A DNA stretch of 20,835 nucleotides from a virus. The notes below the pieces were generated by a model, which saw only the letters and a program-made list of their open reading frames with translations, made no database searches and was not told the origin of the DNA. Shown one piece after another: positions 8,203 through 18,105 of the stretch. Made by a program: the position numbers and the translations under genes. The stretch spans positions 1-20,835 of IMG/VR virus record IMGVR_UViG_3300024520_003924; one strand, 5' to 3'. Each line of letters opens with the position of its first letter. Position 1 is the first letter of the stretch.

Positions 8203-8952
8203 ATGGCAGAACGCGCTGAAATCAAGGTTGTCTTAAACACCAAGGAGGCTGAGAAAAAGGCCCGCGAACTCCGGTCTAAGTCTGAGCGGTCTGAACAACG
8301 CGTCCGAGAATCGCAGGCTGGCGGCGGCGGCAACCAGGCCCGCGGGCAACCACCGGGCGCGCCCACGAGGCCGACGGGCAAGCGAGCGCCTGCTGGGAAG
8401 AAGGGCCCTGGGTTCGGCGGCGGCCTGATAGCTGGCGCGCTCAAAAAAGAGTCGATCAAGGAGCGCATGCGTGGAATCGCGAAGGGCGGGCGCGCAGGTC
8501 TGACAGCTGCCGCGGCAGGCTTCGCCGCCGTCAAGGTCGTTGGAGCAGTTAGCAGCTTCGTCGCGGAGAATTTCGAGCAGCCTAGAATTGACACGATCCC
8601 TAGGGGCGTCACTCGAGAGGAGTTCGCTAAGCTGGAGGGCGAAATCCGCGCGCAGACTGACCAGATCGCGTTCATATCAGACCCGCTACGAGTTCTGCGG
8701 GCTTCGTTTGGCGTGGGTCGCCTGCGGGCCCGAGGGATCGAGGACGCCTTCGCGGCTGGCGGAGACACGGGCGCGGGTGGCCTGGTCTTTACACCTGTCG
8801 GCGAGGCATTCGAGGCCGCGCGGGTGCGTGACGAAATCCTCAAGAGCCGCGAGGAGCGGCGGCTGATCGCTGGTCGTAACCGGCTGGGCCTGGCGAAGCG
8901 AGGAGCCGTCAACGTCCTTGAGATCCTGGCCAAAGGTATCGGAGGCCCCTAG
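8203..8952 (+). CDS. Short tape measure-like tail protein
   Basis: A 249-residue protein. It opens with AEIKVVLNTKEAEKKARELR (residues 5-24), the kind of strand-plus-heptad-helix start seen in tape measure proteins. A Gly/Pro/Arg-rich disordered segment follows (39-75), then a hydrophobic helix long enough to cross a membrane (about 97-120, rich in Ala and Val), a helical middle and a basic amphipathic C-terminus (RDEILKSREERRLIAG). Position after tube genes and before large tip proteins supports the role. If so it is very short: at about 0.15 nm per helical residue it specifies a tail of about 37 nm at most. Gene transfer agents also carry unusually short tape measures. It could instead be a minor tail protein, in which case the window has no tape measure. 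Confidence 0.5.
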   Translation: MAERAEIKVVLNTKEAEKKARELRSKSERSEQRVRESQAGGGGNQARGQPPGAPTRPTGKRAPAGKKGPGFGGGLIAGALKKESIKERMRGIAKGGRAGLTAAAAGFAAVKVVGAVSSFVAENFEQPRIDTIPRGVTREEFAKLEGEIRAQTDQIAFISDPLRVLRASFGVGRLRARGIEDAFAAGGDTGAGGLVFTPVGEAFEAARVRDEILKSREERRLIAGRNRLGLAKRGAVNVLEILAKGIGGP

Positions 8953-10424
8953 TGGCAGTCGTTCGCGAAATGTCGGTTGTCTACGCGGGCCAGGTTATCC
9001 CGGGATCCCGCGCGGGTGCTGATCTCCACCTGACAGGGATACACAGGATTAGAAAAGGGCCCGTAGACGCTACCGTGGTCTTTCGGTTCGTCGTGCAGGC
9101 TTCGTCTGAGTCCATTCTGGCCGCCGCCTGCGTATCCCTGGAGGAGCTGTTTACCCGCCGAAGAGAGGCGCTAAGGGTCAACCTGTTGTCTTCTGAATCC
9201 CTCGAGCTCAGCGACGCGGACGCTACAGGGTTCGACGTCACGCCCGAGATCGTCAAGGTGGGCGAGTCTGATCCGCGCTTCGACACCAACACCTCGAGGC
9301 TCTACGAGGTAACGATCCAGGCTGGCATTCCAGCCCGAACCGTTGACGACGACTTCCTACAGGACTTTGAGTATGACGTGGTCTACACCCCGTCTAGGCG
9401 TGGCGGCCTGACAGTGCGTGGCGCATACACCGCGGACCCAGGGCTGCCGGTGGTCAAGGCCAGCGCTATCTATCTGTCGGAGATCACCGCACGCGTAGCC
9501 ACGATCATTACGGCTCTGGGCTGGTCAGCAGAGCTCGTGACCGAGCGATATACGCCAAACGTCACAGACACCACCGTTGAGTTCGAGCGCTCCTATAGGC
9601 AGGTCTTCTTTAACCAGGACGCAGGCCAGCTAGATAACCCAGGGATTGTTGACCCCTCGCTGATCGTCAAGGTGGTAGACGAGGGCACCGACGGCGACCC
9701 GACCGCACGACCGCTCAAGCGGATCGTCGCCGAGTACACCGCTGCCGTAGACCAGACGGTAGAGGAAGACATGGTCAGCCTGTTTGATACGACCATTCTT
9801 CCGTGGATCACCCAGAACATGGAGACCGTAGCGGGCGGGTCTGTGATTCTTGAGACGGTAGAGCCAGGCTACAACTTCGACGAGCATACGATCCAAGCGA
9901 CGCTGACCGGGCTTGGAACGGCTGGCGGCTCGCTCTTGGAGCGGAAGGTGGAGTTCACGGACTCAATCGACTTCGGGAAGATTATCCGGTACACATGGCC
10001 CGAAATCGTCCCAGACGACGAGACAGACGACGAGCCGAACCCTACCGAGGCATTCAAGTACCAGGCCAACCGCAAGCTAAACCGCCAGGTGATTACGACC
10101 ACGACCACGCTGGGCGACATAGCCTCGCCTGCGCTGGGTGGCGCGGGTGGGGTCCGCGGCTCGCCACGCATTGTGCTCCTAGAAGGTCAGGGCGCGACCG
10201 TGCTGGGCGAGCTCGCGACTCCAACGACAGAGGCAGGGACTGAGGCCGTGCGGTTGTCGCGCAGGAGCCGCAACCAGCCAGGGTTCCGCGGGATCCAGGG
10301 CACCCAGCAACTCGTAACGATAAAGACCGTCACAGAGGAGTTCGAGATCATAGCAGCGAGCGCGCAAGGATCAGGCGGGAGCACAAACCAGCCCAAGACC
10401 AGGACCAGAGGTCAAAGCAGGTGA
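8952..10424 (+). CDS. Tail tip / baseplate-like structural protein
   Basis: A 490-residue protein starting at GTG 8952 with a perfect GGAGG at 8941-8945; the G of the previous TAG is the first base of this start codon. It is rich in beta-strands through about residue 400, beginning MSVVYAGQVIPGSRAGAD and HLTGIHRIRKGPVDATVVFRF, with repeats of strand-turn-strand such as YDVVYTPSRRGGLTVRGAYT. Residues 380-490 are Gly/Thr/Arg-rich and end in a disordered basic tail. I do not recognise the family. Place between tape measure and hub suggests a distal tail or baseplate component. The stop TGA overlaps the next start (GTGA). Confidence 0.55.
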   Translation: MAVVREMSVVYAGQVIPGSRAGADLHLTGIHRIRKGPVDATVVFRFVVQASSESILAAACVSLEELFTRRREALRVNLLSSESLELSDADATGFDVTPEIVKVGESDPRFDTNTSRLYEVTIQAGIPARTVDDDFLQDFEYDVVYTPSRRGGLTVRGAYTADPGLPVVKASAIYLSEITARVATIITALGWSAELVTERYTPNVTDTTVEFERSYRQVFFNQDAGQLDNPGIVDPSLIVKVVDEGTDGDPTARPLKRIVAEYTAAVDQTVEEDMVSLFDTTILPWITQNMETVAGGSVILETVEPGYNFDEHTIQATLTGLGTAGGSLLERKVEFTDSIDFGKIIRYTWPEIVPDDETDDEPNPTEAFKYQANRKLNRQVITTTTTLGDIASPALGGAGGVRGSPRIVLLEGQGATVLGELATPTTEAGTEAVRLSRRSRNQPGFRGIQGTQQLVTIKTVTEEFEIIAASAQGSGGSTNQPKTRTRGQSR

Positions 10425-12601
10425 TCGCCCGGCTAGACGGTGTCCCGCTTGAGGTCCAGTCTGGCTCCCGGTGGATCGAGGTCCCCGGCGTTGCTCCGTC
10501 AATCGTCCAACTCGAGGTAGACCGCGAGACAGCACAGGGTTTATTCGCTGTAGGCACAGCCCTAGGCTCCGTCTTGGAATTGGAGAACGAGGGAGACTCA
10601 AAGGAGATTGCCCAACTCACGATCTTAGGCCTAGGACCCAGCAGCAACCCCAGCACAACCATTCTGACCTTGGTAGACCGCCGATTCCAATGGGCGTATG
10701 TGTTCGTCCCGCGCTATTACAACGTTCGCAGGAAGACGCCAAACCGCAGACGGTCAGACCCAGTCGGGAACCTGCCGCCTGACGCGCGGACGCAGCAGAC
10801 CGTCGTCAGCGACGACGTCTCCTATGCGCCCTGGTCTATCAACAACGGAGTGGCCTGGAGCGGCGAAGAGGTGGCGAGAGATATTCTGGACACCGTGGCT
10901 GGCGCTGGCAATTGGACCGACCGTGACCACGTCCTGGTCGCGTCAACAGTTCCGGTAGAAAACTGGGAATTCAATATGCAAGGGGACGCCGCGGTGGCGA
11001 AGCTCCTGGCGTATCTAGGCGGCGGAGCGAACGTCTATGTTGACGGGACCGGGCAGGTCGTTCTCTACGACACCCAAGGAGACGGTGAGGCGCAGGCCCT
11101 AGGCCTCCCGAATCTGCGCGAGACTACGACACACCAAGGGCTCGTAGAACTGCGACCTATCGTCGGGTTCCCGTTGTTCGAGCGCCAAGACAGACGGAAG
11201 GAACGGCCCGCCAAGATCAGGATCCTGTATGAGCGGCAGGTGGAGGCGAGGATAGACACGAAGGAGTCTGACCCGCTCGGAGACAAGGAGACGAGGCCTA
11301 GAGACGCTGGCGAGCTCCTGCGCTGCTCTAACGTGATTCCTGTCCCGGAAGACGGGACCTTTACCGTGGGCGACGCTACCAGGAAGGTAGTCCGCGGGAC
11401 ATGGCTCACGCTGGACGACTACATAGAGTTCTGCAACCAGAACCCAGGGCCTAACCCGCTCGCGGCCCAGTACCCGCTCTCGCGCTCGCGCCTCAGAGAG
11501 AACTGGTTCGGCAACGCGCTGAACTCCTACGGCGCGCCGGAAGTTGACCGTGGCGGCGTCTGGCGGAAGCGTATCGCGCTACTCCGCGAACACTACCGGC
11601 GGACCTTTCTAATCGGCAAGATATGGCGAGACCGAGTAAAGCGGATCTATCCCTACCGAGTGGGAATCGAAGACCCAGAGACAGGCTCCCGCGCGCCAGC
11701 GCTGGCCTACCAGGACTATTGCGTAGTCCATGCCTGGACGCCATTAAACCAGTCTGATTCGGTGGAGCAGGCCCTGTTCCAGCTGACGCAGAACCGCTTC
11801 TCAAACACGCTGGCCAAGGAGGACGTCGGGAATCAGATCATTGGGACCCGCCTGGACAAGCTCGAGCCAGCGCCTGCTATCGTCCGTGTCCTTGATCAAG
11901 ACCTAGGGATTCTACAGGTCGTCTTGCAGGAGGATTTCAAAGGGCTGGTAGACGCCTATGAGCGATCAGCAGCGGTCGCGAGGTCTGGTGGGCTCGCTCG
12001 GTTCGATCAGCGGAAGATCTTCATTGAGGACACGTTCTTGACGCCGGATATGGAACTCTCGTTCCTGGTGACCTTGAGCCTGGGCGCGCCCAATAACCGC
12101 CGCCGGTTCTATCCTGTGGAGGTCACATTGAGCGAGGCTGAGAGCCTCCTGCCGGGCGCTACGCCCCGCTCGCAGCAGGGCGAGGGTCCCGTGCTCGAGC
12201 TCCGGGTCGGGCTCCCGCGCGCTGTAGCACGGTTCGCTTGGAATGACGACCTGGCCCCGCAGTTCTTCGCCGCGTTTACTGAGGGCGGATCGGACTTTGA
12301 GTTTCCAGCCCTAGGGGACCCAGTAAATCTGGGACAGCTAAAGGACATTGCCAAGGCCTTCGCGCTCCGTGAGTTCATGCGCTACAGGGACCACCCAGAA
12401 GGCCAACTGACGACGACGTTCCGACCAGACGCCACCATTGGCGGGACAGTAACGCGGGTCGTGCATAATTTCGCGAGCGGCGAAGAGGGCGGCGCGCTTA
12501 CCACCGTAGAGCTCGCGCCCTCGCCTCCTGCCGTAGACGCTCAGGCGCTGCTGCCACCAGACGTGCGCAGGATTGTAGAGGGCTTCGTTGACAGAGAGTA
12601 A
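10421..12601 (+). CDS. Large tail hub / tip protein
   Basis: A 726-residue protein coupled to the preceding gene by GTGA. The first 100 residues (ARLDGVPLEVQ, IEVPGVAPSIVQLEVDR, SVLELENEG, QLTILGLGPS, TTILTLVDRR) look like the beta-barrel that opens hub proteins of the gp27/gpD type. A mixed alpha/beta part follows, with SGEEVARDILDTVAGAG near 145 and a GGGANVYVDGTGQVVLYD strand pair near 210. The central part is rich in Arg and aromatic residues, and the C-terminus returns to strands (GGTVTRVVHNF, LTTVELAPS). It is likely the central tip component that closes the tube and anchors the fibre. The hub assignment is from order and fold pattern only. Confidence 0.5.
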   Translation: MIARLDGVPLEVQSGSRWIEVPGVAPSIVQLEVDRETAQGLFAVGTALGSVLELENEGDSKEIAQLTILGLGPSSNPSTTILTLVDRRFQWAYVFVPRYYNVRRKTPNRRRSDPVGNLPPDARTQQTVVSDDVSYAPWSINNGVAWSGEEVARDILDTVAGAGNWTDRDHVLVASTVPVENWEFNMQGDAAVAKLLAYLGGGANVYVDGTGQVVLYDTQGDGEAQALGLPNLRETTTHQGLVELRPIVGFPLFERQDRRKERPAKIRILYERQVEARIDTKESDPLGDKETRPRDAGELLRCSNVIPVPEDGTFTVGDATRKVVRGTWLTLDDYIEFCNQNPGPNPLAAQYPLSRSRLRENWFGNALNSYGAPEVDRGGVWRKRIALLREHYRRTFLIGKIWRDRVKRIYPYRVGIEDPETGSRAPALAYQDYCVVHAWTPLNQSDSVEQALFQLTQNRFSNTLAKEDVGNQIIGTRLDKLEPAPAIVRVLDQDLGILQVVLQEDFKGLVDAYERSAAVARSGGLARFDQRKIFIEDTFLTPDMELSFLVTLSLGAPNNRRRFYPVEVTLSEAESLLPGATPRSQQGEGPVLELRVGLPRAVARFAWNDDLAPQFFAAFTEGGSDFEFPALGDPVNLGQLKDIAKAFALREFMRYRDHPEGQLTTTFRPDATIGGTVTRVVHNFASGEEGGALTTVELAPSPPAVDAQALLPPDVRRIVEGFVDRE

Positions 12602-13445
12602 GCACCTCGTGGTGATCTCTTGTGAGAATTGGTACTACCACGGCTGGCAGGCTCAGGTCGCGACCTATTCCTGCCTGAAGCGGCAGAAGGTAGCACCTAT
12701 GATCGTTGTTCATGGCGGCTACGAAGAAGGCCTGACAGGCGAGTTCCTTGCATGTCGCGAGGCTGGCGCGCTTGTCGTTCCCAGCAAGAACTACCGAGGC
12801 GAGGGCAGCAGAGAATGGGCCGCGCGGAACACTGCAGCGTCTTTGCTCGACGGATACCACAAAGGCAAGCAGCTGGGCGCCACTCATATAGTGCTCATGG
12901 ATCCTGATATGGTCTGGACTCGCAGGATCTCGTGGCCCACCACGCTGGCTGTCGACAGGTGCCCGAACGACCTTCGCGGAGGGCTCGCGGCGAAGATCGC
13001 TGAAGATCTCGGTCTGGACCTGGGCGACGACCCGAACCACACATGGGGCGCCAGGGTTCCCTATGTGATCCCAATAGAGATCGCGAAGGATCTCGGCGAG
13101 GTCTGGTGGCAGATCATGGACCTGTTCTGCGAGCTCCCGGGCTGGGAGTGGTCTGACCAAATGCGGGCCTTCGCGCTGGCGCTCGCTGTCGTGGGCAGGA
13201 AGCCGCAGCGGCTGAAGCTGACGCAGACGAACTGGGAATACGAGGCACCAGTCGAGGCCCCCCTGATCCACTATGCCTACGAATACCGCACCTGGTACAA
13301 AAAGTGGTTCACAGATCCAGCAGACGCTTCTGTGCTCTGGAACCCCGCCAGGATCCCACCGAACTATGTACAAGGCTGGATACACAGAGAGATCGTGTGT
13401 GCCCACGCGTTTTTTACCGCATTAGAGAAGGCCGCGGCCGCATGA
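12588..13445 (+). CDS. GT-A-type glycosyltransferase, hydroxyproline arabinosyltransferase-like
   Basis: A 285-residue protein with no signal peptide or membrane segment, so cytoplasmic. It starts with a strand (HLVVISCENW) and carries THIVLMDPDMVW with D105-P-D107, a DXD metal and nucleotide-sugar site after a hydrophobic strand, as in GT-A enzymes. Other motifs, compared from memory with plant hydroxyproline O-arabinosyltransferases (GT95), occur in the same order: YYHGWQAQV (16-24), the REWAARNTAASLL helix, GARVPYVI (154-161), a long helix with WSDQMRAFALALAVVG (188-203), and LIHYAYEYR (226-234). TTG 12588 overlaps the hub gene by 14 bases behind GAGGG, and the stop overlaps the fibre ATG, so it is made together with the tail tip. 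Modification of a virion protein, most simply the next gene product, is inferred. The general glycosyltransferase call is firmer than the arabinosyltransferase-like one. Confidence 0.6.
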   Translation: MTESKHLVVISCENWYYHGWQAQVATYSCLKRQKVAPMIVVHGGYEEGLTGEFLACREAGALVVPSKNYRGEGSREWAARNTAASLLDGYHKGKQLGATHIVLMDPDMVWTRRISWPTTLAVDRCPNDLRGGLAAKIAEDLGLDLGDDPNHTWGARVPYVIPIEIAKDLGEVWWQIMDLFCELPGWEWSDQMRAFALALAVVGRKPQRLKLTQTNWEYEAPVEAPLIHYAYEYRTWYKKWFTDPADASVLWNPARIPPNYVQGWIHREIVCAHAFFTALEKAAAA

Positions 13446-16400
13446 AACTTGCCGACTTCAGAGTCCTGGGCATGCTCCCGCTTCAGGACCACCGCGGGAT
13501 CCTTCCGCAGAACCGAGAGAAGGTCATGTGTGGCCGGGTCGAGGGTCGGCGAGACCTTGGCCAGTGGGTCATTGAGGGCCATGAAGGATCTCAGTCGGCA
13601 GTAATGACGTCAGGTGACCTTATCGGCGGAATGCACTTCCCGACCGCCAGCACCGCGCTACGTCAGCACGGGTCTTGGTTGTTCGCGGCTCCAGGCGTCG
13701 CGCTGTCGAACTCCAAGAAGGAGACCACGACCAAGTCTGATAATTCGGTCACTCGCACCCGCGCTCAGGACAAGAAGAAGAAGAGCGATAGCCGCACCGT
13801 CAGCGTGGGCCTGGCTGGAAACTCACGCTGGGCCGCGGACCCGAGATATCGCGCGCAGGTCGCAGGCCTTCACCCAGACGCGGCAGACGTCTCTGTAGGT
13901 CAGCCGCTGATCGTCCTGGCCTCGACGAACGAGAACAGCCAAGAACTGCTGGCATTCGCGACCGGCGGCGCGCCATTGGTGGCGGTCAACAAGGCAGGAG
14001 ATCCCAAGCTGGGAACCCTGGTCTACGACCTCGACAAAGACGACAAGCCAGACAAGGATCGGGCAGCCCGACTGCATACCTTCTGGCGGGTGGCAAAGCT
14101 GGCGGGCGGCAAGTGTCTAGGCGGGAATGACACACTGGCTTGGCAACTGACCCTGTCCGGTAAAGACGGGCTGGACGGGCGAGGCCTCGTCTATGACACG
14201 CCGGGCGCCTCCAGCGGCGCCAGCGGCGAAGCTCGAGAAGAGGGAGGGGTCCCCAAGCAGGGCGAGGAGGGCGACCCAGAGGGCCAGTACGGGAAGGTCA
14301 CTAACACCCAGGAGCACATGAAGAAGCTCCTCGAGAACTACCAGGAGCGGACCCAGGGAAAGACGCCGAACCAGCCAGAGGCCCCAGAGCGGAGGCCAGG
14401 CGACGAGACGCAGACCCGACCGCCGCCCGAGAAGACCGAAACGCGGCCCAAGGAGGAGCCGCCAAAAGAGAAAGAAGAGCCGCCCAAAGACAAACCGCCG
14501 GAACCATTGGCCGCTGGCTTCGTCCTCGCGTCGATCACCGCGCGCGCGGGTGGGTTCCTCGAGGTTGGCGATCAGGGGGACGTCCACAGGATCGGGACCA
14601 CCGTTGACGGCGAGCCCGTCAACGCGGCACATATCTCCTGCGACGCGCTCTATAAGAACTCCATGGGCGACGGGCCGCTGGACTTTGAAACTCAACCATG
14701 GGAGGACCCAACTCTTGGTGGCCCCTTCCTGAGCCCAGTCCACCTTCGCTGGGACGGTGGCGTAGCCCACGGCTGGTGCGGCGGAACCGCTCCAGGCAAG
14801 TGGCGGTGGGCTGCTGAGACTTTCTTTTTTATTCCACAGGACGAGACCAAGACAGTCACAGGCCGCAGGCGAGACCCGAAGAAGAAGAAGGTCACGCCCA
14901 AGGGTCCGAAGAAACCGCCCAAGTCAGACACAGGACCACCGAAGGAGTGCCAGACCACTCCAGGCGGTGGCGGGACTGGGGCGGGGACGACATATGACCC
15001 AGGCCCAGTCACCCGCGGAGACGGCTCGATCTCAGGCACGGGCTTACCGACGTCAGGCGGGACGACTGGCGATATAGGCCCTTTCTCAGACATGGGAGGG
15101 AACTGGGTTCCGCAGACCTACCCAGGCGGCACTGGGCAGTATGCACCCAGTGGCTCTGAGCCGACGGATCTGGGCACAGACGGTGGCCCAAATTCAAACT
15201 CTGGGGCCGGTCAAACGACTGTCGGCGGCCAGCTTGAGAACTGGGACCCGCCCGAAGAATGGGTGGACCCTCCGGCGGGCTGGGGCGCATGGGACAAGGT
15301 TGACGGCTGGGACACTGGGCCCGGCTATCCAGGCGGGCAGCTCCCGCTAGACCCGGGGGGACTAGAGCCTACGAGGCCCGATCAGAAAGCAGGCGGCGGC
15401 GGCGGCAGTGGTCTAACAGGAGTCGGCCCCGGCGGGGCTTCAGGGACTGGATACCCGCCACCAAGCCGCGGCAACGGTTCAATCTCGGGGGGAGGTTTGC
15501 CAATTGGCGGCCTGTCTGTGTTTGGCGGCGGCACAATGACGCCAAGCACCTATTGGGCTCTAAACGGCGCTGGCGTTATTGACGAATACGGACGCCCAGC
15601 ACAGACGCCACCCCCCCGAGTAGGCGACTCAGACGCCGTGCGCAAAGCTCGAGGAGGGGGCGAGTCGAGCCGCACGCCGACAGCGCTGCAAAGTATGGGA
15701 TTCAATGGCGGGATTATCCTTGGCGGATATGCGACAGCCCAGGGGCAAACGGACTTCACCAACGGAGGCTGGATACAAGACCTGGTGAGCGTGCCTGCCA
15801 ATGCTGGGAATGTCGCGGCAATTACCGTCGTCGCTCAAGGAGACGGGACCTGGGAGTCATTTACCGCAGCTGGAGGAGGAGGCCAGGCGACCGCTGGCGG
15901 TATCGTGTTCGGGCCGCCAGAGTTCGTAGAGCCTAGCGTGCTCTACGCGCTCCAAAGCGGAGACTATAACCCAGGAGAGACAGCCTCTGGATCGGTCGGC
16001 GCTGGGCCGGTCGACCTCTTCCTGCCAGGCGGCGGGGCTAGCATGGTCTTCGGGACGCCTGGGTTCTCCGGCGTGCAGGGCGGCGGCGGCGTACGCCTTA
16101 CCCATACCCAGGTAGGCCTAGAGTTCGACGTCCTTACTTCGGCTGGGGTCTCGTCAGGCACCAGTCTGCTAGTCGGCGAGGGAGGCGTGCTTATCACGGG
16201 CCCGGTCCATGCGACAGGAAAGGCTACCTTCGACGACATAATAGACCCCACAGGGATCGCCTTCGCAGAGCAGGCCGCGCGACCTGCAAACTGGCCGAGC
16301 CCTGGCGCTGGCGTATTCCTCCCCGGGCTCTATGCAGGAGACACTGCAGGGTCCAACGAAGCCTGGTGGGTTCGCGACGACGGGACAGAGGTAGACCTTT

Positions 16401-16870
16401 CGCTTGCTAGCGGGACGTCGGTACTCGTGGCCGACGCTACGCACGTGTCAACGGTAGGCGCTGCAGAGCAGACGCTAAAGAGCTACCAGTTCAGCGCTGC
16501 CCAGCTGTCTATCGGTGACCAAGTCAAGATCACGGCGTGGGGCACCTTCGACGACGGATCGCAGACAGGTTCGGCGTTCCTGCGCTGGGGCGGGGCCGGT
16601 GGATTAAAGATCGGAACAGGGCAGGGTGACGGGGGCGACCCGTGGAGGATCGACGCGATAGTTTCTATAACCGCCGCGACTGAGCAGGAGGCGGCCGGGG
16701 TCACGATCTACACGAGCACAGGAACCACGTTCGTAGATCACACTTCGCACACGGAGGCGATCTCAGGCACGATCGACCTACTGCTGCGTGGAGACAACAC
16801 GGTAGGCTCAAACAACGACGCGGCAAGCGTCCGCGGCTGGAAGGTCGAGCTTATCCCGGCTGTGCCCTAG
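13442..16870 (+). CDS. Large Pro/Gly-rich tail fibre / receptor-binding protein
   Basis: This 1142-residue protein starts at ATG 13442, overlapping the glycosyltransferase stop (ATGA). Parts: a globular N-terminus (1-85), probably the tail anchor; a Lys/Ser/Thr-rich linker (88-118); a second globular part (119-250); a Gly/Glu linker and a Pro/Glu/Lys hinge (308-356, with RPPPEK and two EEPPK units); a beta domain with Trp and Gly (357-465); a Lys/Pro linker (466-502); a long Gly/Pro/Trp-rich low-complexity region (503-740) with a duplicated 12-residue motif; and a C-terminal beta part. Residues 930-985 (DPTGIAFAEQAARPANWP, then AWWVRDDGTEVDLS) match the stretch that often precedes receptor-binding heads, and 990-1142 look like a jelly-roll head. 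It probably recognises the host surface. Confidence 0.65.
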   Translation: MKLADFRVLGMLPLQDHRGILPQNREKVMCGRVEGRRDLGQWVIEGHEGSQSAVMTSGDLIGGMHFPTASTALRQHGSWLFAAPGVALSNSKKETTTKSDNSVTRTRAQDKKKKSDSRTVSVGLAGNSRWAADPRYRAQVAGLHPDAADVSVGQPLIVLASTNENSQELLAFATGGAPLVAVNKAGDPKLGTLVYDLDKDDKPDKDRAARLHTFWRVAKLAGGKCLGGNDTLAWQLTLSGKDGLDGRGLVYDTPGASSGASGEAREEGGVPKQGEEGDPEGQYGKVTNTQEHMKKLLENYQERTQGKTPNQPEAPERRPGDETQTRPPPEKTETRPKEEPPKEKEEPPKDKPPEPLAAGFVLASITARAGGFLEVGDQGDVHRIGTTVDGEPVNAAHISCDALYKNSMGDGPLDFETQPWEDPTLGGPFLSPVHLRWDGGVAHGWCGGTAPGKWRWAAETFFFIPQDETKTVTGRRRDPKKKKVTPKGPKKPPKSDTGPPKECQTTPGGGGTGAGTTYDPGPVTRGDGSISGTGLPTSGGTTGDIGPFSDMGGNWVPQTYPGGTGQYAPSGSEPTDLGTDGGPNSNSGAGQTTVGGQLENWDPPEEWVDPPAGWGAWDKVDGWDTGPGYPGGQLPLDPGGLEPTRPDQKAGGGGGSGLTGVGPGGASGTGYPPPSRGNGSISGGGLPIGGLSVFGGGTMTPSTYWALNGAGVIDEYGRPAQTPPPRVGDSDAVRKARGGGESSRTPTALQSMGFNGGIILGGYATAQGQTDFTNGGWIQDLVSVPANAGNVAAITVVAQGDGTWESFTAAGGGGQATAGGIVFGPPEFVEPSVLYALQSGDYNPGETASGSVGAGPVDLFLPGGGASMVFGTPGFSGVQGGGGVRLTHTQVGLEFDVLTSAGVSSGTSLLVGEGGVLITGPVHATGKATFDDIIDPTGIAFAEQAARPANWPSPGAGVFLPGLYAGDTAGSNEAWWVRDDGTEVDLSLASGTSVLVADATHVSTVGAAEQTLKSYQFSAAQLSIGDQVKITAWGTFDDGSQTGSAFLRWGGAGGLKIGTGQGDGGDPWRIDAIVSITAATEQEAAGVTIYTSTGTTFVDHTSHTEAISGTIDLLLRGDNTVGSNNDAASVRGWKVELIPAVP
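14363..14509 (+). repeat. Proline-rich hinge with EEPPK repeats in the fibre
   Basis: Residues 308-356 of the fibre contain about one Pro in three or four, including RPPPEK and consecutive EEPPKEK and EEPPKDK units. This is a protein-level low-complexity repeat, probably an extended, rigid hinge between two folded parts. Its make-up recalls the Pro-rich targets of hydroxyproline glycosyltransferases. Confidence 0.6.
15014..15049 (+). repeat. Copy 1 of a duplicated fibre motif (RGDGSISGTGLP)
   Basis: Residues 525-536 of the fibre. Ten of twelve residues equal those of copy 2, which lies 151 residues downstream. It marks the start of one Gly-rich module, and copy 2 marks another, so the low-complexity region probably arose by duplication. 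Copy 1 contains an RGD triplet. Confidence 0.6.
15467..15502 (+). repeat. Copy 2 of the duplicated fibre motif (RGNGSISGGGLP)
   Basis: Residues 676-687 of the fibre. It matches copy 1 except for Asn instead of Asp and Gly instead of Thr. At the DNA level the copies differ at many third positions, so the duplication is old or under protein-level selection. Confidence 0.6.
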
Positions 16871-17397: not shown

Positions 17398-17546
17398 CCG
17401 TCAGTCCAGACCGCGAGTATGCGCCGGGTTACTTCCCTAGCCCGGTGCAGTTCGAGCTCGAGCAGGGCGAGTGCTAGCGCCTCTGCCTCCTCCGGAGTCA
17501 GGGTCTCTGTTTTTGTTTTCTGAACCAGGCCTTCTAATTTGGTCAT
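17394..17546 (-). CDS. Small acidic helical protein (50 residues)
   Basis: An ATG at 17546 on the minus strand opens 50 codons to TAG (17394-17396). The product starts MTKLEGLVQKTKTETL, continues with a Leu/Glu-rich helix (PEEAEALALALLELELHRAR) and ends in REVTRRILAVWTDG: an amphipathic, well-formed helical protein and not the random composition of a chance frame. No Shine-Dalgarno is present, but TAGCCT stands exactly six bases before the ATG, as at three other genes here. It fills an otherwise empty 170-base gap between two plus-strand genes. Function unknown; a small regulator or inhibitor is possible. Confidence 0.5.
   Translation of the reverse strand: MTKLEGLVQKTKTETLTPEEAEALALALLELELHRAREVTRRILAVWTDG
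17513..17540 (+). promoter_or_regulatory. Weak promoter candidate for the resolvase gene
   Basis: TTGTTT (17513-17518) and TAATTT (17535-17540) are 16 bases apart in a locally AT-rich stretch. They would start a transcript near 17547, about 22 bases before the resolvase start. The resolvase gene lacks a coupled upstream neighbour and needs some promoter. The hexamers are poor. Confidence 0.25.
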
Positions 17547-17552
17547 ACAGGC

Positions 17553-17558
17553 AGGCTA
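17553..17558 (-). promoter_or_regulatory. Leaderless -10 candidate of the 50-residue gene
   Basis: TAGCCT on the minus strand ends six bases before the ATG at 17546. It has the same TANNNT and spacing as the elements before 749, 802 and 8203. No convincing -35 hexamer is present. Confidence 0.35.
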
Positions 17559-17568
17559 CAACCACCCT

Positions 17569-18105
17569 GTGACGCCGATAGAGTTCTTCTTACCCGGGCC
17601 CACCTTTTCCTGGCGGGAGAAGAAAAAGAAGAGGACAGGCCAGCACCCAGCGGTCAAAGGGAACAGCATGGCGCTGTTCCGGGTCAATGGGCAGCCTAGG
17701 ATATCCCCCTCGGGCCGCACCCGCGCGGCCCAGGCTGCGCTCGTTAAGGCCCTGCTGGAGGTGCCTGAGAGGCCGCTGGTGCCCTGGGCAGCGGACATTC
17801 GACTAGACGTGCTGTTCGTCTTGGGCGTGCCTGCCAGCTGGCCGCGTTGGAAGCGAGAGGCGGCGCTGGACGGAGCCATTAGACCTACTGCGACAGGCAG
17901 AGGTGATCGCGGAAACTATCTCAAAATGTTTGAAGACGGGCTGGAGGGCGCGGGCTTTCTCGCTGACGACGGGCAGATCTGCGCTGGCGAGGTCGGCAAG
18001 GCCTACGGGCCCCTGCCTGGGTTCAGGATCCGGCTCGAGGCGCTGCCAGCGGGCCCGACCTCAGCAGCAGAGGCCCGCGAGCTCTCAGCCACGGAGCTAT
18101 TCTAG
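17569..18105 (+). CDS. RusA-like Holliday junction resolvase
   Basis: From GTG 17569 the protein has 178 residues and opens IEFFLPGPTFSW, the typical RusA start (a TTG at 17539 would add ten residues). RusA enzymes cut four-way DNA junctions as dimers and clear branched phage DNA. Family blocks seen: GVPASWPRWKREAAL (86-100), IRPTATGRGDRGNYLKMFED (104-123) and FLADDGQICAGEVGKAYG (130-147), matching 'P-SW--K', 'kPD-DN--K---D-L' and 'dD-qi--l---K-y'. The family's D-x-D-N reads D113-R-G115-N116 here, so the second catalytic Asp is replaced by Gly, while D113 and D133/D134 remain. Lys/Arg-rich insertions (17-50) make it longer than E. coli RusA. The end overlaps the convergent zinc-module gene by nine bases. 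Confidence 0.7.
   Translation: MTPIEFFLPGPTFSWREKKKKRTGQHPAVKGNSMALFRVNGQPRISPSGRTRAAQAALVKALLEVPERPLVPWAADIRLDVLFVLGVPASWPRWKREAALDGAIRPTATGRGDRGNYLKMFEDGLEGAGFLADDGQICAGEVGKAYGPLPGFRIRLEALPAGPTSAAEARELSATELF

What the first reader, a model, noticed from the sequence alone, without database searches (positions are those of the whole stretch)
12588..13445. Glycosyltransferase with a hydroxyproline-arabinosyltransferase-like layout inside the tail-tip operon
The protein shows a GT-A core with D105-P-D107 after a hydrophobic strand. The order of W-Q-x-x-V, an N/W helix, (E/D)PD, a G-x-x-P-V/Y-V-I strand, a long W...M-x-A-x-A-x-A helix and a I-H-Y-x-Y motif is that of plant hydroxyproline O-arabinosyltransferases (GT95) as I remember them. 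Its start and stop overlap the hub and fibre genes, so it is made with them. A peptidyl glycosyltransferase of this type in a phage late operon would be a virion-modifying system of unfamiliar kind. Mycobacteriophages are known to glycosylate virion proteins with their own enzymes, so the general idea has precedent.
Basis: partly seen in the sequence, partly recalled or inferred. Interest (0 to 1): 0.82.

Follow-up and report, generated by a model that had tools for sequence, protein, structure and literature searches.

The report
Phage tail-operon GT-A glycosyltransferase
An uncultured tailed phage carries, squeezed between two of its tail genes, an enzyme that very probably attaches sugars and that distantly resembles the plant enzymes that put arabinose on proteins; related phages keep a shortened copy that has lost the catalytic residues, so it may be a sugar-coating tool for the phage's own tail.

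Summary
The ORF at 12588-13445 (285 aa, TTG start) is a real gene. It overlaps the upstream gene by 14 nt and the downstream gene by 4 nt, and it is under purifying selection (dN/dS 0.07-0.20 between long relatives). Five relatives sit at the same place in phage contigs that share the head genes. A six-sequence AlphaFold2 model (pTM 0.71) has only GT-A glycosyltransferases among its listed PDB matches (best E 1.6e-4), so the GT-A call holds. The four long members keep D105-P-D107, D190 and H228.

The plant link is suggestive only. Pfam HPAT (GT95) is the first or second hit for two relatives at E 0.03-0.07, below the curated cut-off, and gives nothing for the window protein itself. A profile comparison with a validated HPAT sequence gives E 0.002-0.004 (0 of 300 shuffles as good); GT2, GT6 and GT8 controls score lower. 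True hydroxyproline arabinosylation is unlikely: no prolyl hydroxylase was found, and the sugar donor is a plant one.

New: two relatives are 215-234 aa and have lost or altered all three catalytic motifs, yet stay open in the same slot.

Best reading: a glycosyltransferase acting on the phage's own tail protein, with non-catalytic relatives. The substrate is unproven.

The parts
12588..13445 (+). GT-A fold glycosyltransferase gene, 285 aa, TTG start
   Evidence: ORF; dN/dS 0.07-0.20 with and among long relatives; AF2 pTM 0.71 and GT-A matches
12645..12659 (+). W20-Q-A-Q-V24 motif (W20 invariant in all six members)
   Evidence: alignment A4; aligned with WQCRI of HPAT
12900..12908 (+). D105-P-D107, metal/nucleotide-binding DXD, at the end of a predicted strand (100-104)
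   Evidence: invariant in four long members, PPD or DVN in the two short ones; model
13047..13070 (+). G154-A-R-V-P-Y-V-I161, predicted strand
   Evidence: aligned with GNSPVII of HPAT
13155..13157 (+). D190, candidate catalytic base (xED-like) at the start of predicted helix 189-201
   Evidence: invariant in long members, segment absent from short ones; model; role inferred from the GT-A core in PMC7185993
13161..13187 (+). M192-x-A-x-A-x-A-x-A200 helix
   Evidence: part of the stretch matched by Pfam HPAT in relatives
13266..13280 (+). I227-H-Y-A-Y231; H228 is the candidate C-His metal ligand
   Evidence: invariant in long members, H to R or D in short ones; aligned with IIHYTY of HPAT
10421..12601 (+). 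upstream tail gene (hub candidate, 726 aa), overlaps the GT start by 14 nt
   Evidence: no family hit
13442..16870 (+). downstream tail gene (fibre candidate, 1142 aa), ATGA overlap with the GT stop; most likely acceptor (inferred)
   Evidence: no family hit
14366..14515 (+). Pro-rich linker of the fibre candidate (15 Pro in 50 residues, includes PPP)
   Evidence: possible acceptor segment, untested

Best explanation
The gene encodes a soluble, metal-dependent, nucleotide-sugar glycosyltransferase of the GT-A fold. D105/D107 and H228 would hold the metal and the nucleotide diphosphate, and D190 would be the catalytic base. It is made together with the tail gene before it and the fibre-like gene after it, and most likely adds a host-supplied sugar to one of these tail-tip proteins (the fibre first), changing receptor contact, stability or recognition. 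Shown or well supported: gene reality, GT-A fold, conserved motif set, conserved slot. Inferred: catalytic activity, protein acceptor, which protein, which sugar. In a related lineage the protein has lost the catalytic motifs and is either decaying or kept as a non-catalytic tail-assembly or binding protein.
For: GT-A matches fill the PDB list and many viral matches are glycosyltransferases. DXD, D190 and H228 are invariant in four long members that are as little as 56% identical, with dN/dS 0.07-0.20. The gene lies between the same two tail genes, with overlaps at both ends, in 6 of 6 records. G008 and G012 share 99-100% identical head genes, yet differ from the 512-aa-gene homologue onwards; the GT type changes together with hub and fibre N-terminus, so the gene travels with the tail-tip genes. 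The only plausible sequence relative, HPAT, is a protein O-glycosyltransferase. No membrane-enzyme or DNA-modification context was seen next to it.
Against: No acceptor, donor or activity is known. TM-scores are low and the model is uncertain at 208-249, which contains H228. The two short relatives lack the motifs, so catalysis is not always needed. The fibre's Pro-rich segment does not track with the long GT type: G014, with a short GT, has one too. Operon position alone does not prove that the product acts on its neighbours.
Confidence: 0.55

Rival explanations
1. The enzyme modifies a host surface glycan or lipid-linked sugar (receptor masking, superinfection exclusion) rather than a virion protein.
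For: GT-A enzymes with DXD commonly build lipopolysaccharide and wall glycans, and the fold matches do not fix the acceptor.
Against: The gene is locked by overlaps between two virion-type genes in 6 of 6 records and co-varies with the tail module. Receptor-modifying genes usually sit outside the structural operon (general knowledge).
Confidence: 0.2
2. The protein is mainly a structural or chaperone part of the tail tip that descends from a glycosyltransferase; catalysis is lost or secondary.
For: Two relatives lost the DXD, the D190 segment and the H228 histidine together, yet keep an open frame, the same overlaps, coding-type GC by codon position, and the N-terminal part and C-terminal tail.
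Against: The four long members keep every motif under strong purifying selection. The short ones are very divergent (dN/dS 0.59 between them), which also fits decay.
Confidence: 0.17
3. It is a true hydroxyproline O-arabinosyltransferase (GT95) acting on a hydroxylated Pro-rich fibre.
For: Colinear motifs, Pfam HPAT as best or second hit for two relatives, hhalign E 0.0023-0.0038, Pro-rich linker in the adjacent fibre gene.
Against: Below the Pfam cut-off; no PF13640 hydroxylase in the six partial records; the donor UDP-L-arabinofuranose is characteristic of plants (general knowledge); D190 does not align with an acidic residue of HPAT.
Confidence: 0.03
4. It glycosylates phage DNA bases.
For: Phages do encode DNA glucosyltransferases.
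Against: No base-hypermodification gene nearby; the slot is in the tail module; no resemblance to known DNA glucosyltransferase families in PHROGs or Pfam.
Confidence: 0.03

Closest known systems
GT95 hydroxyproline O-arabinosyltransferases (Pfam PF23452 HPAT)
   Same: Colinear W-Q, (E/D)PD, P-V/Y-V/I-I, W...M-x-A-x-A-x-A, Q-x-x-W and IHYxY; 198 aligned columns by hhalign. GT95 is predicted GT-A-like (PMC8476585).
   Different: About 23-26% identity and below the Pfam cut-off; no signal anchor; D190 not matched by an HPAT acid; phage context; no prolyl hydroxylase found.
GT25 collagen hydroxylysine galactosyltransferase (COLGALT1, PDB 9evj)
   Same: Best Foldseek match by E-value (1.6e-4); GT-A fold, Mn-dependent, protein acceptor.
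   Different: 12% identity, TM 0.35/0.22: fold level only.
GT6 ABO enzymes and GT8 glycogenin
   Same: GT-A fold; GTB aligns in sequence across the DXD region (A4 positions 89-117).
   Different: No significant sequence similarity (hhalign E 0.025-0.47).
Mycobacteriophage virion-glycosylating enzymes
   Same: Phage glycosyltransferases proposed to modify virion proteins (for Maravista, PMC11256854).
   Different: No sequence relation was detected: tblastn of the 50,697 phage records found nothing at E <= 1.

Membership tests
GT-A fold glycosyltransferases | Rossmann-like alternating fold that matches solved GT-A enzymes | tested here: met
   AF2 pTM 0.71, pLDDT 65; all 50 listed PDB matches are GT-A enzymes, 56 matches at E <= 0.001. 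TM-scores are low.
GT-A fold glycosyltransferases | DXD after a core strand | tested here: met
   D105-P-D107 after strand 100-104, invariant in four long members
GT-A fold glycosyltransferases | xED-type base and C-terminal metal-binding His | tested here: inconclusive
   D190 and H228 are conserved in long members, but H228 lies in a low-confidence part of the model
GT-A fold glycosyltransferases | Sugar-nucleotide transferase activity | not testable with these tools
   needs protein
GT95 / Pfam PF23452 HPAT | Score above the curated cut-off (23.9 bits) | tested here: not met
   best 14.1 bits (L028); 13.0 (L027); no hit for the window protein, L002 or the short members; no match in the six-frame search
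GT95 / Pfam PF23452 HPAT | Colinear family motifs and profile similarity above chance | tested here: inconclusive
   hhalign E 0.0023/0.0038 with 0 of 300 shuffles as good, 0 of 123 phage ORFs at that E; hmmsearch 0-1 of 20,000 shuffles as good; marginal in absolute terms
GT95 / Pfam PF23452 HPAT | Hydroxyproline acceptor and UDP-L-arabinofuranose donor | not testable with these tools
   no PF13640 prolyl hydroxylase in the six partial records
GT95 / Pfam PF23452 HPAT | Shared solved fold | not testable with these tools
   no HPAT structure in the PDB copy

The most novel reading that the evidence does not exclude
A previously unnamed phage family of protein O-glycosyltransferases, remotely homologous to the plant GT95 enzymes, that is translated with and modifies the tail fibre or hub, and that has a sister lineage of catalytically dead copies kept in the same slot for a structural or lectin-like role.
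Probability: 0.2. Interest if true: 0.7.

Novelty: new variant of a known kind. Interest (0 to 1): 0.45.

Why it matters
If true, it gives phages a tail-tip protein glycosylation gene fixed in the structural operon, a possible prokaryotic-virus relative of the plant GT95 fold family (for which no structure was found in the PDB), and a natural pair of catalytic and motif-less versions in phages with nearly identical heads, so the role of tail glycosylation could be tested by comparison.

Tried and rejected
AF2 with two sequences was useless (pLDDT 35). Direct look-ups with the window protein found only a 97% relative, nothing in genome contigs, nothing in phages; its 56% relative found nothing in plasmids and only E 4 matches in phages. 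A net alignment with invented substitutions (A2) served only to make degenerate patterns, gave no new relative and is not evidence. Relatives were reached through the major head protein. No viral HPAT was found with that probe. Plain BLASTP of the window protein against HPAT is insignificant (E 0.10) and pairwise z-scores were -0.3 to 3.1 depending on matrix and mode. A FAD_binding_2 hit on L027 (E 0.031), aldolase-type NCBIfam hits (E >= 0.05) and a PHROG hit (E 0.22) were judged chance. The idea that long GT types go with Pro-rich fibres failed: G014, with a short type, has one as well.

Full report
Observation. Its first 14 nt overlap the end of the 726-aa ORF 10421-12601 and its stop shares ATGA with the start of a 1142-aa ORF. 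The motifs named are there, with one residue more between G154 and P158 than stated. The window is a 20.8-kb IMG/VR virus record with a head protein that matches the PHROG 'major head protein' and a neck/tail-completion protein. The 726-aa and 1142-aa genes have no family hit, so 'hub' and 'fibre' remain names by position.

First searches were blank. The protein has no match in Pfam, PHROGs or NCBIfam, none of note in PDB sequences, and none in 50,697 phage records. Direct search of viral contigs gave only a 97% identical copy.

Relatives. Searching with the major head protein brought 19 contigs, and a search of 18 of those records found the gene in G001 (96%), G012 (57%), G006 (56%), G008 and G014 (about 31-39% in pieces). 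All lie between the homologues of the 726-aa and 1142-aa genes, with an 8-23 nt overlap at the start and a 4-nt overlap at the stop. dN/dS is 0.171 for window/G001, 0.148 for window/G012, 0.204 for window/G006 and 0.067 for G012/G006; this is a constrained gene.

Anatomy. In the four long members D105, P106, D107, D190, H228, W20 and many others are invariant. The two short members (215 and 234 aa) have PPD and DVN in place of DPD, lack much of the 118-157 stretch and the segment with D190, and have R or D in place of H228. They are open frames with the same overlaps and GC-rich third codon positions, so they look like genes, but their mutual dN/dS of 0.59 is compatible with relaxed constraint. 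Among GT-A enzymes the DXD, the xED aspartate, a G-loop glycine and a C-terminal histidine are core residues, although individual families have lost some of them (PMC7185993); loss of the DXD alone would therefore not prove a dead enzyme, but loss of all three together makes it likely. The assignment of D190 and H228 to these roles is inference.

Fold. With six sequences AlphaFold2 gave pLDDT 64.7 and pTM 0.71, with strand 100-104 leading into the DPD, a strand at 159-162 and a helix starting at 189. All 50 listed PDB matches are GT-A glycosyltransferases: COLGALT1, GT6 blood-group enzymes, glycogenin, GnT-I; 56 matches have E <= 0.001. TM-scores are 0.28-0.41 and residues 208-249 are poorly modelled, so this is a fold-class assignment and does not choose a family. 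Viral matches include many glycosyltransferases and unnamed Caudovirales proteins.

The HPAT question. BLASTP of the single pair is insignificant. With the family profile, hhalign gives E 0.0023 (long members) and 0.0038 (all six, columns 13-236 of the profile to 6-235 of HPAT), and none of 300 shuffles is as good. hmmsearch scores 10.1 and 11.6 bits; 1 and 0 of 20,000 shuffles are as good. GT8, GT6 and GT2 controls, each confirmed by Pfam, give E 0.47, 0.26 and 0.16 against the long profile and 0.13, 0.025 and 0.23 against the full one; none of 123 other phage ORFs reaches E 0.0038. Independently, Pfam HPAT is the only family hit for L028 (E 0.031, 14.1 bits) and the second for L027 (E 0.065), in the right register. 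Against this, the curated cut-off is 23.9 bits, the window protein has no hit, and the six-frame PF23452 search reported no match at E <= 10 in any record. In the joint alignment D190 does not face an acidic residue of HPAT. I conclude that remote homology to GT95 is plausible (about even odds) but membership is not shown. GT95 has itself been predicted to have a GT-A-like fold (PMC8476585), and no HPAT structure is in the PDB copy.

Function. The partner argument is genomic. G008 and G012 are 99-100% identical through their head genes; from the homologue of the 512-aa gene onwards they fall to about 40-60% identity, including the hub gene, and one has the long GT while the other has the short form. 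So the GT type belongs to the tail module. The most economical reading is an enzyme that acts on a tail-tip protein, most likely the product translated right after it. Hydroxyproline arabinosylation itself is improbable: no PF13640 hydroxylase was found in the six partial records (the control genomes did ring) and the donor sugar is a plant one. No sugar-nucleotide enzyme was among the ten G008 proteins scanned, so a host nucleotide sugar is presumed. The Pro-rich linker of the fibre candidate (15 Pro in 50 residues) is a possible acceptor but does not track with GT type.

Verdict. Ordinary in fold, unusual in place and in its motif-less relatives; acceptor and activity open. Interest 0.45. 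Records are partial metagenome contigs, so absence statements are weak.

Noticed in passing
G008 (IMGVR_UViG_3300033146_001765) and G012 (IMGVR_UViG_3300033148_002946): 99-100% identical head modules joined to tail modules of only about 40-60% identity: a sharp recombination joint after the 224-aa gene.
   Followed up: partly
L029:1174-1821 and L030:1123-1827 (minus strand): Shortened GT relatives that have lost or altered all three catalytic motifs but remain open frames in the same slot.
   Followed up: yes
L046:9281-11101 (minus strand): A 607-aa protein with YadA head repeats lies upstream of the portal-like gene in G008/G012, an adhesin-type domain outside the tail-fibre slot.
   Followed up: no
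window 17539-18105: RusA-like Holliday junction resolvase directly after the tail genes (Pfam E 2.3e-11; PHROG E 2.7e-18).
   Followed up: no
window 8203-8952: The ORF at the position of a tape-measure protein is only 249 aa, which would mean a very short tail if it is one; identity weak between relatives.
   Followed up: no
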